From contig PSQN01000003.1 of assembly GCA_002989075.1 (NCBI GenBank), positions 1,236,865-1,300,864 on the forward strand: 64,000 nucleotides of DNA, given 5' to 3'. The translations under genes were made by a program, and so were the position numbers. Below the pieces are notes generated by a model. The model was not told the DNA's origin. It saw only the letters and a list, made by a program, of their open reading frames with translations, and did no database searches. Source of the DNA: Arthonia radiata (Eukaryota > Ascomycota > Arthoniomycetes > Arthoniales > Arthoniaceae). Shown here piece after piece: positions 57,776 through 64,000 of this stretch. Positions within the stretch are counted from its first letter, which is position 1. Every line of letters begins with the position of its first letter.

Positions 57776-57875
57776 CACGAGTTTGCCTTCGCGTGGCGCA
57801 GATGTTAGTAGTCGGACTTGTTCGATGAACTGAAAGCTCTTCCATGAATCAATCAACTTGACCTTGCTCTTCGAT

Positions 57876-57926
57876 CTTCTTCTTCTTCTTCTTCTTCTTC
57901 TTCTTCTTCTTCTTCTTCTTCTTCTT
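57876..57926 (+). repeat. (CTT)17 microsatellite
   Basis: Seventeen uninterrupted CTT units. Translated, it yields an artificial poly-leucine run. Confidence 0.97.
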
Positions 57927-58100
57927 TATGCGTCTTTCAAGCTGCATCCTGTGACTTTCTCAGCATGCTCGTATTCGCTCGCTATCAAATCTGCTGCTGG
58001 CGTCTCCTTCATCTCCGCATGTATCAACACAACGACTTCAGCATCTCCACAAAATGAGCAACACCCTTCTCATCACCGCTTTGTTCAAGATGTCGCTTTG

Positions 58101-58265
58101 AACAGATGTAAGGCAAATGCAAGTTGCTACTGCGGCCAACAGTATGGCTCGTCATGTGAACGCCTGGCTATCATTGGAACCGAGAAATGCAACTGCCCTT
58201 GGGGTGAGCTGCGTGGTGACATGCTGTACGTTCTCTGTGGAACTCTCAATGATGTCGACCTCAGA
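58101..58265 (+). CDS. Possible exon of a cysteine-rich small protein
   Basis: Between the microsatellite and the minisatellite, a non-repetitive open stretch encodes seven cysteines in about 45 residues (C-x6-C-x-C-x6-C-x10-C-x-C-x12-C, including SCYCGQQYGSSCERL). This spacing is typical of small secreted or EGF-like proteins. No in-frame ATG lies upstream in this frame, so a start exon with signal peptide would have to be joined by splicing, and I could not find one. It could be a relic or chance. Confidence 0.28.
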
Positions 58266-58504
58266 TCTTCCTCAACTCACCTTCCCAGCCATCGCGCTGG
58301 CTTGAGAACCTCCTCATCAAGCCCCATTCTGACCTCGCCAGCTCCGTGCTTCTTTGCAGGCCTGTTCGAAAATACCACTCTGCACCCCACCACGCTCTCC
58401 TCCTCCGAAGCCGCTCCATCTATCTCTCCTTCCCTCTTTCTTAGTATCTCCAAGACCGTTACACGATCTCTTACGGAACTGCACCATGGCCTCTCCGGCG
58501 ATCT

Positions 58505-58848
58505 CAGATCTCTCTACCTCCGGTCCTCCGCCTCTCGTTCTACGCAGCCTTTCGTTCTTCGCAGCCTGTATTGCTCCGCAGCGTCTCCTTGTCCGCAGCT
58601 TCTCGATATCCGCAGCCTCTCGACCTCCGCAGCCTCTATTGATCCACGTCGTCTCCTTCTCCGCAGCCTCTCGTCCTCTGCAGCCTCTCTTCTCCGCAGC
58701 CTCTATCGGTCCACGGCGTCTCCTTTCCCGCAGTCTCTTGTCCTCTGCAGCCTCTCGTCCTTCGCAGCCTCTCGCCCTTCGCAGCCTCTCGCCCTTCGCA
58801 GCCTCTCGACCTCCGCAGCCTCTCGACCTCCGCAGCCTCTCCTGCTTC
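58505..58848 (+). repeat. 17-bp minisatellite
   Basis: Many imperfect copies of a unit like GCAGCCTCTCGCCCTTC, cleanest between about 58,750 and 58,845. Because 17 is not a multiple of three, all three plus-strand frames translate the same 17-residue cycle (Ala-Ala-Ser-Arg-Pro ... Leu-Arg-Ser-Leu). Long overlapping open frames appear on both strands here and should not be taken as genes. Confidence 0.9.
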
Positions 58849-60127
58849 TATTTGTCCACTTACTCTGCTGTTCCGCCTCTTCTCCACCCCTCTCGACCTC
58901 CAAACACTCACGGTCTTCAGACTCTGTAGACGCTTTAGGTTCTCCACTAGGAAGATCACCCCCTGGAGCAATAAGGCCGGCAATGGCAACGTTCTCGAGT
59001 AACCACTCCAGTCAAAGCGGCGCCCGAGCCGTGGAATCTGGGTCAGTGCCAGTGGAGATACCTTCGAGATGGCCTGAAGAGGCACCTGACGAGACACACG
59101 GATGCTCTGAGACCTACTCGAAGACGATGTATTGATCCAATTTGATCGAGAAAGTGAGATGGCCGTAGCATCCAGCTGTCAGACCAGAAGTGTCTAGCGC
59201 ATATCAGGGCATAGGTCATCAAAGCTAGACGAAGAAGCGAGGAAAGTGAGATGCAAATGCGGTGTGTTAGTGCGCAGGATTTTCTAAAAGGTCATCGATG
59301 CAGCAGTCATACCAGCGATTATTGACTACAATCCTGACTCCATCGATCATCGCTGGCGCTTCGATCGCTTGAGGGCGCTTCACCGCTTACAGGCGGATAG
59401 ATGTGGGTTCTGTGGATCTTATCTGCAGCTATTGCGGAGGTGACAGTAAAGCATTGATACCAGCGGCATACGGTGCCAAAACGGAGCTCAAGGTAAAGCG
59501 CCGGCGGAAGCAAGATCGTAAAAGGCCGCAAGGAGGCACACGGGAATGCTCTGGAATCTACCACCTCGGCAGCTTCACTCAAGATCGTAAAACTTTGCGG
59601 ATGTCTAGCCTCTGCATTCATCCTTTAGAACCGCACTACCTCAGAACTGCAACTAGTTTTGACAGCTTTGTGTCCGCCCTGCCCAGCCGCTGCGATGAGC
59701 CAGTGCCCCACCGCGGGACCTTGTAAATGCCTGTGCACAGACTGTGGATAGATGCTGATGAGCTGCATCCGACGATCGTCTCCTTCCAATCGAGAGGTAA
59801 GTGCAAGTCGACATTAATGGTGTAAGCCGAGCCAGGAGGAGACCATGTGATGCACGGTCTACTTGCCGATATATATCAGCTATAGCAGGAAAGACGTGAC
59901 TTGGAGTAAGAAGAAAATGCTGCTCGGAAAGGTTAGAAGTCATTTCCAGACATGGTTAACCTACAATGACGACTGACTGCACAATCGGCGGGGTATTTGC
60001 TGCTCTTTCTGATCAAGCATCCCGGGCAAGGTTCCAAATAAGTCAGGGTTTTTCAGGTCAGGTTGAGTCAGGACCCCAATATGACTCAGGTGAGTCGGTG
60101 ATAAGGCCAACCCTGATTTGAGCCGAC
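58849..60127. other. Intergenic, no gene seen
   Basis: About 1.3 kb with short unsupported frames. Near the right end (60,064-60,135) several TGA(G/C)TCA-like sites cluster: TGAGTCA at 60,064-60,070, TGACTCA at 60,082-60,088, and variants beside them. These fit the bZIP (AP-1/Gcn4/Yap) core, though an imperfect short repeat would look the same. Confidence 0.4.
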
Positions 60128-60457
60128 TCATTCAATAGCCTGAGCATCCGTCCTCGACTGTTCCGGACACTGGCATCCCTCTGGAGGCATTCCATAACGG
60201 GAGTGGAACCAGTGAAGCTCTGATTCTTTGTACCACCACCAGAAGCCACCCTGAGGTGCAATATGTCGACGAACCCATCCAGTAAGATCCTCAGGGGGAT
60301 CCTTTTGGACGTAGAAACGCGTTCGCATGGGGTCGTTTTGGTCTACCGCTACGGGATGGCCTCGTTCCGGATGAACGTGGAACGCCGCCGCCTCAGGCTG
60401 CTCAACTGTGCCGGTTGGCACGCCAGCTTGAGTGGAAGGATCGACTGGATGTGGCAT
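60128..60457 (-). CDS. Small protein, unknown family, copy 1 of 3
   Basis: 109 aa from the ATG at 60,457. The start context (TCTAGGATGCCA) closely matches that of copy 2 (TCAAGGATGCCA), which supports this start. Residues aligned with the other two copies: FHVHPERGHP, a D-Q near the middle, RFYV, then W-x-x-R-H and the tryptophan run GGFWWWYKESEL. The other copies have (G)xxWWF or HWF at the same place. No signal peptide or membrane segment is seen, so a cytosolic or nuclear site is more likely. This copy is the most diverged and has a longer tail after the Trp block, ending CQCPEQSRTDAQAIE. A conserved upstream block lies at 60,616-60,690. I do not recognise the family, and no function is claimed. 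Confidence 0.55.
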   Translation of the reverse strand: MPHPVDPSTQAGVPTGTVEQPEAAAFHVHPERGHPVAVDQNDPMRTRFYVQKDPPEDLTGWVRRHIAPQGGFWWWYKESELHWFHSRYGMPPEGCQCPEQSRTDAQAIE

Positions 60458-60615
60458 CCTAGATGAGATGGGCTCGCTGTTAATCAATGATGTTATAAAG
60501 CTATACTACTCAGGCTGTTGATGAGAAGCAGATAGCGGACGAAAGAGTAGAGCTGCACACTATAATGCTGCATTTAAGTATCATAAAGCGCAGTCTTGTT
60601 TTATATAGTTGCGAA

Positions 60616-60690
60616 ATGTTGACACGTTAGGTGCAAGCGCAACAGACGCCGGGTGGATCTTCCAAAGTGACAGATTTCAACGGTGGATCA
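60616..60690 (-). promoter_or_regulatory. Duplicated upstream block, copy 1
   Basis: 75 bp, about 82% identical by eye to 61,837-61,911. It shares ATGTTGACACGTT, AACAGACGC and GGTGGATCA. It lies about 160 bp upstream of the start codon of small-protein copy 1, just as the partner lies about 190 bp upstream of copy 2. Its position suggests a promoter or 5' leader carried along in gene duplication. Confidence 0.7.
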
Positions 60691-60707
60691 CTGTGGGGTA
60701 GGTCTGA

Positions 60708-60749
60708 GGGCAGCCCAAAACCAAAGCCTAAATTCAAATTGGGCTGCCC
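60708..60749. other. Perfect 11-bp inverted repeat (hairpin)
   Basis: GGGCAGCCCAA (60,708-60,718) and TTGGGCTGCCC (60,739-60,749) pair perfectly around a 20-base AT-rich loop. It sits next to the conserved upstream block of copy 1. It could be a transcript hairpin, a terminator for an unseen gene, or a binding site. Confidence 0.8.
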
Positions 60750-61216
60750 CGTAGTGTTCTCCGGTCCACCGGATTTTACCTGCTGTTGGGGTATATTTCG
60801 AAAGATATGATAGCAACATTAGAGCTGGCAGAACAAAGGTAGGATACAAGATGGAAATACTCTATCACATATTTGTGCGGCGCTTGAAGCCAAGCATGGT
60901 TTGAATATTAAAAAGATGGCTTTGGTGGTGCAAAGAACTTGACCACTTCGAACGCCGTCAGCGACAGAAAGGCGTTATGGAGTAAGCCTGCGATGTGGCC
61001 ACCTTTGCAGAAACAGATTGGAACTGAGGCTAGGCTAAGATCGGAAAATGGAGACTGCGAAACATATTGAATGCACATCGGTGATATTTAGTGCCCTGAA
61101 TCCTAAAAGATCATGGAACTACGGGCTCCGGTAGTCATGTTCCAGAACGCACAGCAGCACGCGTCACTGAAATATCGAAACCGCGCAAGCCAGATTGTAG
61201 AAAGAGGATGCATTGC
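60750..61216. other. Intergenic between small-gene copies
   Basis: No gene or repeat recognised. Confidence 0.35.
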
Positions 61217-61320
61217 TACTATCGAGAGACGACGCAGTGCAGCACTATCTCTTCGAGCATCTCGTTGCCATATGTTTCAGCGTCGGCCGGCAAGTGATCC
61301 TCTCACGGGAATATCGTCCA
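61217..61320 (-). repeat. Shared 3' flank of small-gene copies 2 and 3
   Basis: About 100 bp homologous to 63,647-63,750. Both contain CTATCGAGAGACGACGCAG and AGTGATCCTCTC. It covers the end of copy 2 and its 3' flank, which shows that whole gene segments, not only coding sequence, were duplicated. Confidence 0.8.
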
Positions 61321-61645
61321 AATCTGGCACAGGCGGTGGCGGCGGTACATCAGCGTGGTGAAACCACCATGTGTGGCCCTGGATCCGATGAGACGACCAA
61401 TTGTCGGGTGACGTTTCAGGGGACGTGTTGTAGCCGATGACCAGCCGGTTTGTGCGTTGGTCGAAATTTCCGGGAGTGTTGTTGCGACGAAGGTGAAACC
61501 ATTGTGCGACATGCGGCTCATGACCACCGACGTGGAACCAATCCTCATGTCCAGCCCAGAATTTTTGGAGCGCGGTATCGTGGGTAGATTTTCTAACACC
61601 TTGCTGGCTTACAACCGTTCCCGAACCTGGGGGAAAACCTGGCAT
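61277..61645 (-). CDS. Small protein, unknown family, copy 2 of 3
   Basis: 122 aa from the ATG at 61,645. Features shared with copies 1 and 3: DTALQ, FHVG, a TN or Q-x-x-N segment, VIGY or VVGY, then W-x-x-H-x-x-x-G-x-x-WWFHHADVP. The last block is tryptophan- and histidine-rich (HTWWFHHADV). A PPPPPVP proline run and a basic end follow. It has no signal peptide and no cysteines of note. Relative to copy 3, the frame continues about 20 residues further. The upstream block at 61,837-61,911 and the 3' flank are shared with the other copies. The family is not known to me. The conserved Trp/His pattern, with drift elsewhere, suggests purifying selection on a compact domain. Confidence 0.6.
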   Translation of the reverse strand: MPGFPPGSGTVVSQQGVRKSTHDTALQKFWAGHEDWFHVGGHEPHVAQWFHLRRNNTPGNFDQRTNRLVIGYNTSPETSPDNWSSHRIQGHTWWFHHADVPPPPPVPDLDDIPVRGSLAGRR

Positions 61646-61836
61646 CCTTGATGAGAGAAATCGTCGGTAATCAGTGCCGCGTAGGGGCCTCAGGGGGTTT
61701 TGCTGTTTAGGCTGTGAGCGAAGGATATGTCATGGACGGGAGATAGATTGAGTATATGGAAGCAGAAACGCGCCGACAGCAGTAATACTATGTTCAAGCA
61801 TGGTAGAGCAGCGCCAGTCTTATAGGTAGCCGTGAC

Positions 61837-61911
61837 ATGTTGACACGTTGGGCGCAATTGTAACAGACGCTGGGTAGATCTTCCTAAGAGACAGCTCTCG
61901 CCGGTGGATCA
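61837..61911 (-). promoter_or_regulatory. Duplicated upstream block, copy 2
   Basis: Partner of 60,616-60,690; see there. It lies about 190 bp upstream of the start of small-protein copy 2. Confidence 0.7.
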
Positions 61912-62390
61912 ATGCGTGCGCAACGGCCATGCTGAAACGTGTACTGAACAAGTCACTGAGCCAAAACTAGCCAGGTGGCTCAATAAACTCTGCTTTGCTC
62001 CTTGTCCTGTCGGAACGTGGATCTGCGTACAGGCTACGTATCTTGCAAAGATACATAAGCTGATTATATAAGATTTGTAGCGTCGTTTGCCTTGACGAGG
62101 GTGGGCAAATGAGCCACCACGGCCCCCAACGCTAGCGTCTGCTGAATCGTGCAATTTGACAAAAAGTCTCCTTCCCGGCATTACCGTCAGTGTCTGGAGG
62201 GAACGTATATCAACATATCTACAAGAATACGTATGGGTATTATGGCCCTAACTACGTACTTACAGCTGTTCTCTTTTTCCCTAGAATTCACAACGCCTGT
62301 TGTATCATACCAAAAAATGGCAAGCAACAGAAATAGAGTTCAAGCTAGCGGTAGGGGCGGCAGAGGAAATTAGGACGACTGAGGTGCTCG
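61912..62390. other. Intergenic, no gene seen
   Basis: No supported gene, repeat or RNA. Confidence 0.35.
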
Positions 62391-62829
62391 TCAACTTTTT
62401 TCTGTTCTCTTCTTTGGAGTGAGCAGGAAGAGCAGTGGTTTCTTCGAAGGGTGAGATGCCTTTTTCCCTGAAATCTTGGAACTATCGCACCGTGTTGAAC
62501 TAGAAATGGTGGTAGGCATGTCGTTAGCAAGGAGAGAAAGAACCGCATCGCTAGCCTTGAGAACCTCTGGATCGAGCATGTCCAAGCCGTTACGGTGGGC
62601 TTCCCAGATACTGCACTGAGGCCACCTCACCATATTGTGGTGAATTGCCGTACCGTATCCCTGCAAACACTGCATCTGATGAAGGCAGCGACGTAGTCTC
62701 AAGGACGCTACCTTCTACGCGCAGGAGGTCACGCCTTCGAATCGGGCTCCAGCAGAAGTAATGAACGATACCGTCTTCTAGTAGGCTGTCGTCAATCGCC
62801 AAGAGCAGCTTCTTCAGCCTGAGTGCCAA
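62391..62829 (-). CDS. Possible two- or three-exon gene of unknown function, partial model
   Basis: Two open stretches on the minus strand can be joined in phase: 62,829-62,719 (LRLKKLLLAIDDSLLEDG, then FCWSPIRRRDLLR) and 62,660-62,391 (GYGTAIHHNMVRWPQCSIW, then a Lys/Ser-rich tail). They meet across a 58-bp intron with acceptor TTTGCAG and a weak donor GTAGAA. No ATG opens the first piece, so another 5' exon would be needed; a CAG acceptor lies just upstream. The family is unrecognised. The tail ends in a basic KPLLFLLTPKKRTEKS. Confidence 0.25.
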
Positions 62830-63759
62830 GGCCGCTGACGATGTCAGTAAGCTTTGGGAGTCGGCCGGTGCTCAATCGGGTCCGATGCATTCCTAGTGAT
62901 GTCGAGAGATACGCTTTTAGTCAGCGGCAGGAGATGTATAGGGACGGGAGTAGTATTGGACTTGCGAGAGTCCCAAGTGTGCGAGAACGCATATTTGAAA
63001 GGATTCCGGGCGTGTTGGCCCCGGGATCCCAAGGAGGTCAAACGTTCCTTGTCTGATTAATGAACGCTTTCTTGTCGTGGCTGAGTAAGTATTGAAGAAT
63101 GAATACATAAACGGTGAACACTCAGCAAAAGCGGACGCGCGCTCTGCGGAGTCGCGGACCCTGATCGGCATAGGGACTGCGACGTCAAGCCATGGCCAAG
63201 TCAGACTCGGTCTACGTGGAAGACTAGCACTGGATGCTTCTAGATGAGCGGAGTACGAAGTAATCTTTGTAAGGAGGGGCTTCGTATCTCAAGACCTCGA
63301 ACTTCAGCCTGTGCCGACCGAACTCGACTCACTCCGGCGCGGCCACATCGAAGTTTTGTACGACATGCTGCATGTTGTTCATTTTCTCAGTATGCTCAAC
63401 ATACTCTTTCAAGTCATCTCTAATATTGCAGAGGCTGTTAGTCCTCATCACAACACTAAACTTCGTCAGCCGTCCTCACGCCGTACCGCAACACAGCAAT
63501 CAGGGCATTCTCCGCCAAGTCTCCGTCTTCCACTCCAAGACTCACACACACGCATCTGGTACGTTACTGAAGCCCTTTACAGTACTCTCAACCGCCCACA
63601 CGTAAGGCCAAAAAAGTTGACCATCCAAATAATCTTGATTACTGCTATCGAGAGACGACGCAGTGCCGCACTAAGTCTACAAGCATGTCGTCGCCAGAAA
63701 GTTCAGTCTCGACCGAAGAGTGATCCTCTCCCAGTGGACCCATTCCAATCCGTCCGATC
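62830..63759. other. Mostly intergenic; 3' flank of copy 3
   Basis: Short frames only. The right end (63,647-63,750) is homologous to 61,217-61,320. Confidence 0.4.
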
Positions 63760-64000
63760 CTATCGCGGCAAGTCAGCGTCGCGAAACCAATGTGTGCCAA
63801 CCCTGGTGTGGTGACGCATCCATCCCCGCGTATCCGCAGGGGCGGACGTGTAGCCGACGACCGTCTGGTTGGTGCCCTCGTCTGTCGTCCTGGGAGCGCC
63901 GTCACGCCCAACGTGGAACAGCCGACCGGCGGCGTGCTCAACTCTTTGAAGTGCAGTGTCTTGACCTCCGGGGTTGTTGCCGTTCTGACGGCCACCTCCG
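63760..64000 (-). CDS. Small protein, unknown family, copy 3 of 3 (5' end outside window)
   Basis: 79 codons are visible; the start lies beyond the right edge. It aligns with copy 2 over DTALQ, LFHVGRDGAPR, a TN segment, VVGY, GWMRHHTRVGTHWFRDADLP, and then stops after one further Arg. The nucleotide similarity to copy 2 continues past this stop, so copy 3 ends earlier (or copy 2 reads further) within homologous DNA. A glycine- and asparagine-rich stretch (GGRQNGNNPGG) precedes DTALQ at the edge. The family is unknown. Confidence 0.5.
   Translation of the reverse strand, partial: GGGRQNGNNPGGQDTALQRVEHAAGRLFHVGRDGAPRTTDEGTNQTVVGYTSAPADTRGWMRHHTRVGTHWFRDADLPR

What the first reader, a model, noticed from the sequence alone, without database searches (positions are those of the whole stretch)
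60128..64000. Three-copy array of an unrecognised small protein family with a Trp/His-rich block
Three minus-strand frames within 4 kb share an ordered set of residues: FH(V/L), a D/Q-N region, (V/I)GY or RFYV, then W-x-x-x-H and a closing (G)-x-x-WW(F) or HWF block followed by A-D-(V/L)-P. They also share start context and flanks. Conservation of scattered Trp/His positions with drift elsewhere argues for real, selected proteins. I know no family with this pattern. It is the best candidate here for an undescribed system.
Basis: partly seen in the sequence, partly recalled or inferred. Interest (0 to 1): 0.75.

Follow-up and report, generated by a model that had tools for sequence, protein, structure and literature searches.

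The report
Three tandem copies, unknown fungal gene
A stretch of what looks like a fungal chromosome carries three neighbouring copies of a small, fast-changing protein gene that matches no catalogued family; the genes look real, but private gene families are, as far as I know, common in fungi and what this one does is unknown.

Summary
Three minus-strand ORFs are tandem paralogues: A 60128-60457 (109 aa), B 61277-61645 (122 aa), C 63760-64107 (115 aa; its start lies 107 bases beyond the window). B-C likeness is strong, A-C modest, A-B not significant alone. A is tied in by C, by its start (MPHPVDPS, as in C) and by promoter DNA. A promoter motif drawn from these genes has 6 genome hits at up to one mismatch, 5 of them here. 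B and C share a 3' element found nowhere else in the genome at up to 3 mismatches. B-C substitutions preserve protein only in the annotated frame (z 3.1). Codon usage is coding-like. dN/dS is about 0.5 (B-C) and 0.6 (A-C, interval reaching 1.04). Promoters and 3' modules are better conserved than the coding sequence. No match in Pfam or NCBIfam, only chance-level PDB sequence hits, no relative in low-sensitivity scans of bacterial/archaeal and viral collections. Structure predictions failed (pLDDT 42, 49). Most likely a lineage-restricted, co-regulated family of small soluble proteins with a Trp/His-rich core. Fungal proteomes and RNA-seq, which would decide novelty and expression, were not available. 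Real, but of an ordinary kind. A 29-ORF single-strand array of another unrecognised family lies 14 kb away.

The parts
60128..60457 (-). Gene A, single open frame, 109 aa plus stop, starting MPHPVDPS
   Evidence: codon log-likelihood highest of its six frames
60598..60693 (-). 5' block of A, 79% identical over about 98 bases to B's and 73% over 90 to C's; holds a TATATAA-like box
60666..60685 (-). Promoter motif CACCGNNGARANCTGTCNCT of A
61212..61304 (-). 3' module of B (end of coding sequence and 3' flank), 79.6% identical over 93 bases to that of C
   Evidence: no reading frame favoured, z at most 1.16
61219..61240 (-). Identical 22-base 3' element of B and C; two sites in the genome at up to 3 mismatches, these two
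61277..61645 (-). Gene B, single open frame, 122 aa plus stop
61817..61914 (-). 5' block of B shared with A and, less, C, with a CCTATAAG box
61887..61906 (-). Promoter motif of B
63638..63730 (-). 3' module of C matching that of B
63645..63666 (-). The 22-base 3' element at C
63760..64000 (-). Gene C, window part; its ATG is at 64107 in window numbering (115 aa plus stop). Its promoter, beyond the window, has three copies of the motif in a 50-base tandem repeat

Best explanation
A tandem array of three co-oriented paralogous genes of a fungus, each an uninterrupted frame of 109-122 codons behind a related TATA-type promoter. Shown: common descent, a promoter motif nearly private to the array, a shared 3' element in B and C, coding-like substitution (B-C) and codon patterns, no hydrophobic leader from the ATGs used. 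Inferred: the genes are switched on together under one condition and make soluble intracellular proteins with a variable, probably disordered N-terminus and a small Trp/His-rich, probably beta-rich module of about 55 residues (E..FH...P..D...Y...P..W....W) that works by binding a partner. The copies diverge fast in coding sequence while the regulatory flanks are kept, so after duplication the same expression programme seems retained with different binding surfaces, as in lineage-specific families involved in recognition or condition-specific responses.
For: B-C homology E 8.1e-7 in 33.5 Mb; A-C 2 of 3000 and B-C 0 of 3000 shuffles. Nucleotide-guided B-C alignment: only the annotated frame keeps amino-acid similarity, z 3.14; the other five z at most 0.76. 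Codon log-likelihood A 0.096, B 0.080, C 0.216 against 62 local ORFs taken as noncoding (mean -0.096, sd 0.093, max 0.161). There the controls overlapped the background set, so it was repeated with separate stretches and without the two array ORFs in training: in one split 0 of 30 control ORFs reach A, B or C, in the other 1 of 32 exceeds A and B and 0 of 32 C; the annotated frame is best of six for all three each time. NG86 dN/dS B-C 0.60/1.20, bootstrap 0.19-0.89; A-C 0.73/1.20, bootstrap 0-1.04. Promoter motif: 5 of 6 genome hits at up to one mismatch lie in this array. 3' element: 2 of 2 genome hits are B and C. B-C identity over ungapped columns: promoter -250 to -131 81 of 115, leader -70 to -1 49 of 70, N-terminal coding part 63 of 126, core 96 of 171, 3' module 71 of 90, beyond it 48 of 120. 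Maximum 11-residue Kyte-Doolittle mean in the first 40 residues: 0.13, 0.41, -0.45.
Against: A-B similarity alone is at chance level (1150 of 3000), and C finds A only at E 0.025 among 1826 local ORFs. The A-C interval of dN/dS reaches 1.04. The core-only B-C estimate (54 codons) is closer to neutrality: NG86 0.59/0.86, LWL85 0.67/0.76, with codon positions about equally conserved (0.54, 0.59, 0.57). The frame test was made for B-C only. The promoter motif was drawn from these promoters, and its reversed control has 3 hits. Both structure predictions are unusable, so 'beta-rich binding module' is a guess from residue pattern and low-confidence strands. An upstream exon is not excluded: C's frame is open for 36 residues before its ATG. 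No expression or population data.
Confidence: 0.72

Rival explanations
1. Decaying duplicates: one real gene (perhaps C) and two relics on the way to pseudogenes; similarity is leftover from duplication.
For: The dN/dS interval for A-C reaches 1.04; codon positions of the B-C core are about equally conserved; C carries a stop before a stretch that resembles B's tail, so the C-terminus is not conserved; A lacks the 3' module.
Against: All three frames are intact after a synonymous divergence of about 1.2; in-frame similarity is kept between B and C; codon usage is coding-like in all three; promoters are kept in all three.
Confidence: 0.15
2. Effector- or recognition-type proteins: a fast-diversifying family acting on a host, competitor or non-self partner.
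For: Coding sequence less conserved than its own promoter and 3' module; tandem array; no family match; near a second highly divergent array.
Against: No hydrophobic leader in any of three; two cysteines in A, none in B and C; dN/dS below 1 for B-C, not above; nothing known of expression during any interaction.
Confidence: 0.1
3. Noncoding repeat: the conserved units are promoter/3' regulatory or mobile-element DNA and the frames are incidental.
For: Promoter and 3' module are more conserved than the frames; the 3' module shows no favoured frame; a palindromic element upstream of A has a 53-base relative at 83% on contig C1.
Against: The motifs are nearly or wholly confined to this locus, not dispersed; apart from that palindrome, DNA of the array finds no dispersed copies; frame-specific conservation.
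Confidence: 0.05

Closest known systems
IGY small secreted proteins (IGYPs) of Dikarya (PMC4367982; abstract and section list seen)
   Same: Small, highly divergent fungal family kept together by a few residues; B has VIGY and C VVGY in the core.
   Different: IGYPs are secreted, with IGY at the N-terminus and a uniform gene structure; here the GY is central, A lacks it, and no secretion signal is seen. The sequences were not compared.
Lineage-specific tandem small-gene families of filamentous fungi in general (recalled)
   Same: Tandem copies, related promoters, fast divergence, no Pfam domain.
   Different: Promoter and 3' module conserved more than the coding sequence is less usual, as far as I recall; not compared quantitatively here.
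The neighbouring 29-ORF 'LPLEII' array (L006:3822 to L008:6978)
   Same: Nearby local array of a divergent, uncatalogued family.
   Different: Other protein, other strand, F-box-like start by eye; no promoter DNA shared with A, B or C beyond two matches of B's promoter (12 and 27 bases, E 0.87).

Membership tests
Any Pfam-A family | Score above chance with a curated profile | tested here: not met
   0 families for 3 of 3 proteins up to E 10 (one search had C only in part)
NCBIfam families | Profile match | tested here: not met
   0 families for 3 of 3 members up to E 10
Proteins of solved structure | Sequence-profile match to a PDB chain | tested here: not met
   3 hits up to E 10, best 0.63: a nanobody twice and a cytochrome c oxidoreductase chain, judged chance
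IGY small secreted proteins | N-terminal secretion signal | tested here: not met
   No hydrophobic N-terminal stretch by a simple hydropathy scan, not a dedicated predictor
IGY small secreted proteins | IGY at the N-terminus | tested here: not met
   VIGY/VVGY lies in the core of B and C; A has RFYV
Lineage-specific tandem paralogue family | Co-oriented adjacent copies with significant similarity | tested here: met
   A-B not significant on its own
Lineage-specific tandem paralogue family | Absence from related species | not testable with these tools
   No eukaryote collection held. Bacterial/archaeal and viral scans gave no relative (0 of 118 and 0 of 40 pattern matches confirmed)

The most novel reading that the evidence does not exclude
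An undescribed, lineage-restricted protein fold, carried by a three-gene array whose regulatory DNA is conserved while its coding sequence diversifies, and forming with the adjacent 29-ORF divergent array a local hotspot of gene-family birth that supplies variable recognition proteins.
Probability: 0.12. Interest if true: 0.6.

Novelty: new member of a known kind. Interest (0 to 1): 0.3.

Why it matters
If confirmed, it adds one more uncatalogued fungal protein family and a tidy case in which promoters and 3' ends of duplicates are kept while the coding sequence changes faster. It would not change a general picture. It might if the core proves to be a new fold or a recognition locus.

Tried and rejected
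Intron or second exon: the B/C 3' module reads alike in another frame (EDH...HCVVSR, ending in TAG), which suggested a spliced C-terminal exon. GT-AG joins of 40-400 bases that would reach it were enumerated on both genes. B has a candidate of 49 bases just after the core (GTACCG...AGAG, no branch site found); C has no GT donor at that place. By my judgement no splice model is shared, and no frame of the module is favoured by its substitutions (z at most 1.16). Read as the end of the coding sequence plus 3' untranslated DNA.

Fourth copy on contig C13 (E 0.504): it lies opposite a 503-aa open frame that looks like a beta-lactamase/transpeptidase-type enzyme (recognised by eye; no family search made). 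Rejected as chance.

Structure: two AlphaFold2 runs with three-row alignments gave mean pLDDT 42.2 (B) and 49.2 (A); no fold search was made on them.

Called a fungus because of a fungal rhodopsin domain, RIP-like composition and an ORF that looks Zn2Cys6-like by eye, for which Pfam gave no match at 0.001. The species is unknown.

Literature: five searches (15 of 36, 10 of 135, 3 of 3, 5 of 5 and 0 of 0 papers listed) showed no paper recognisable as this family; only listings with the starts of abstracts were seen, plus the abstract and section list of PMC4367982.

Full report
What was examined. The window lies at C9:1236865-1300864 of a 33.5-Mb, 16-contig genome. It looks fungal: a fungal rhodopsin domain, with FMO-like, EamA and ubiquitin-S27a genes, and a first 40 kb that is AT-rich with TA/AT ratios of 1.63-1.94 against 0.47-0.87 in the rest (4-kb bins), as repeat-induced point mutation gives (recalled). 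The species was not identified.

The three frames. A is 60128-60457 on the minus strand, from its first ATG, beginning MPHPVDPS (the start at 60487 is a TTG). B is 61277-61645. C is 63760-64107, its start in L005 beyond the window, also MPHPVDPS. B finds C in the genome at E 8.1e-7, C finds B at 4.6e-5, and A finds only itself. A hybrid query of 69 residues recovers C, B and A, A at E 0.0022, and nothing else up to E 10; it is partly circular because it contains their residues. Among 1826 local ORFs, B finds C at 1.8e-8, A finds C at 0.0016 and C finds A at 0.025; the best other hit of any query is 0.043. With one partner shuffled, 0 of 3000 reach the B-C score, 2 of 3000 the A-C score and 1150 of 3000 the A-B score. 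The three-row alignment has 13 invariant columns.

Flanks. A and B share a 5' block (79% over about 98 bases), A and C a weaker one (73% over 90), and B and C a 3' module (79.6% over 93). Genome-wide, B's upstream DNA finds A's but not C's and C's finds only itself. A DNA-level alignment without protein guidance lines up promoters, TATA-like boxes, start codons and, for B and C, the 3' module. The promoter motif CACCGNNGARANCTGTCNCT, drawn from these promoters, has 6 genome hits at up to one mismatch: 1 at A, 1 at B, 3 at C and 1 on C10; the reversed-pattern control has 3. The C copies sit in a 50-base tandem repeat (2.8 units). The 22-base 3' element has 2 hits in the genome at up to 3 mismatches, B and C; control 1.

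Are they genes? On the nucleotide-guided B-C core, amino-acid similarity exceeds a substitution-preserving null only in the annotated frame (z 3.14; others at most 0.76). A protein-guided version gave z 3.56 but is biased towards the frame. A was not put to this test. Codon log-likelihoods are 0.096, 0.080 and 0.216, against a mean of -0.096 (sd 0.093, max 0.161) for 62 local ORFs assumed noncoding. Because those controls overlapped the background set, and two of eight training ORFs came from the unrecognised array, I repeated it with separate stretches and six training ORFs: 0 of 30 controls reach A, B or C in one split; in the other 1 of 32 exceeds A and B, and none C. The annotated frame is the best of six for all three in every version. 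dN/dS by NG86 is 0.50 for B-C (bootstrap 0.19-0.89, 80 codons), 0.60 for A-C (0-1.04, 75 codons) and uninformative for A-B (21 codons). A 54-codon core-only B-C estimate is higher, 0.68 by NG86 and 0.88 by LWL85. So constraint is present but weak.

Coding against flanks. In the B-C alignment, identity over ungapped columns is 81 of 115 in the promoter (-250 to -131), 15 of 24 at -130 to -71 (mostly gaps), 49 of 70 just before the start, 63 of 126 in the N-terminal coding part, 96 of 171 in the core, 16 of 34 after it, 71 of 90 in the 3' module and 48 of 120 beyond. The coding part thus changes faster than its promoter and 3' module. Regulatory constraint on the flanks explains this as well as diversifying selection on the protein does; dN/dS gives no sign of the latter.

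What it is not. 0 Pfam families for 3 of 3 proteins up to E 10, 0 NCBIfam, and only chance-level PDB sequence hits (best 0.63). In the bacterial/archaeal collection 118 pattern matches and in the viral collection 40 gave 0 confirmed relatives; these scans used one and two short peptide patterns and are of low sensitivity. No hydrophobic leader was seen from the ATGs used; an upstream exon is not excluded. AlphaFold2 gave pLDDT 42.2 and 49.2, too low for any fold comparison, which was therefore not made.

Mechanism. The best reading is a co-regulated set of small soluble proteins with a Trp/His-rich core that binds something, kept in three diverging versions. Common descent, related promoters and coding nature are shown to the degree given above; co-expression, intracellular location, fold and binding are inferred, and the biological role is open. 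Rivals are relics of duplication, effector-like or recognition proteins, and noncoding repeats with incidental frames.

Surroundings. Beyond the window, 29 plus-strand ORFs at 77.8-101.0 kb in window numbering (L006:3822 to L008:6978) match one profile built from 10 of them (28 at E 1.9e-6 or better, one at 0.0012; no minus-strand hit up to E 1). Their shared start, LP(L/M)E(I/L)I, looks F-box-like, but only 1 of 14 members scanned touches PF12937, at E 0.022, and a profile of the 14 finds no significant PDB family (best a protein disulfide isomerase, E 0.011). No plus-strand DNA similarity within that array passes 1e-6, so it is old or fast. It shares no promoter with the three genes. A single member used as genome query recovers only itself and 3 others up to E 0.01, which shows how insensitive the genome counts here are.

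Verdict. It is a small uncatalogued gene family of a known kind, with novelty among fungi untested.

Noticed in passing
L006:3822 to L008:6978 (77.8-101.0 kb in window numbering, beyond the window): 29 ORFs, all on the plus strand, of one divergent family starting LP(L/M)E(I/L)I, F-box-like by eye but with no significant Pfam match; perhaps a better lead than the present finding.
   Followed up: partly
window 1-40000: AT-rich stretch (GC 0.24-0.39 in 2-kb bins) with RIP-like dinucleotide ratios (TA/AT 1.63-1.94) and no complete open frame of 170 aa or more; may be a centromere or a RIP-mutated repeat block.
   Followed up: partly
window 60708-60749: Perfect 11-base inverted repeat GGGCAGCCCAA/TTGGGCTGCCC upstream of A; a 53-base relative at 83% and a second partial copy lie on contig C1. 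Perhaps a small dispersed hairpin element.
   Followed up: partly
window 57858-59135: A 425-aa listed ORF overlaps a TCT run (57875-57926) and a 17-base tandem repeat (58530-58841, 18.4 copies); the frame is probably an artefact of the repeats.
   Followed up: no
L005:292-436: 50-base tandem repeat (2.8 units) carrying three copies of the promoter motif upstream of C.
   Followed up: partly
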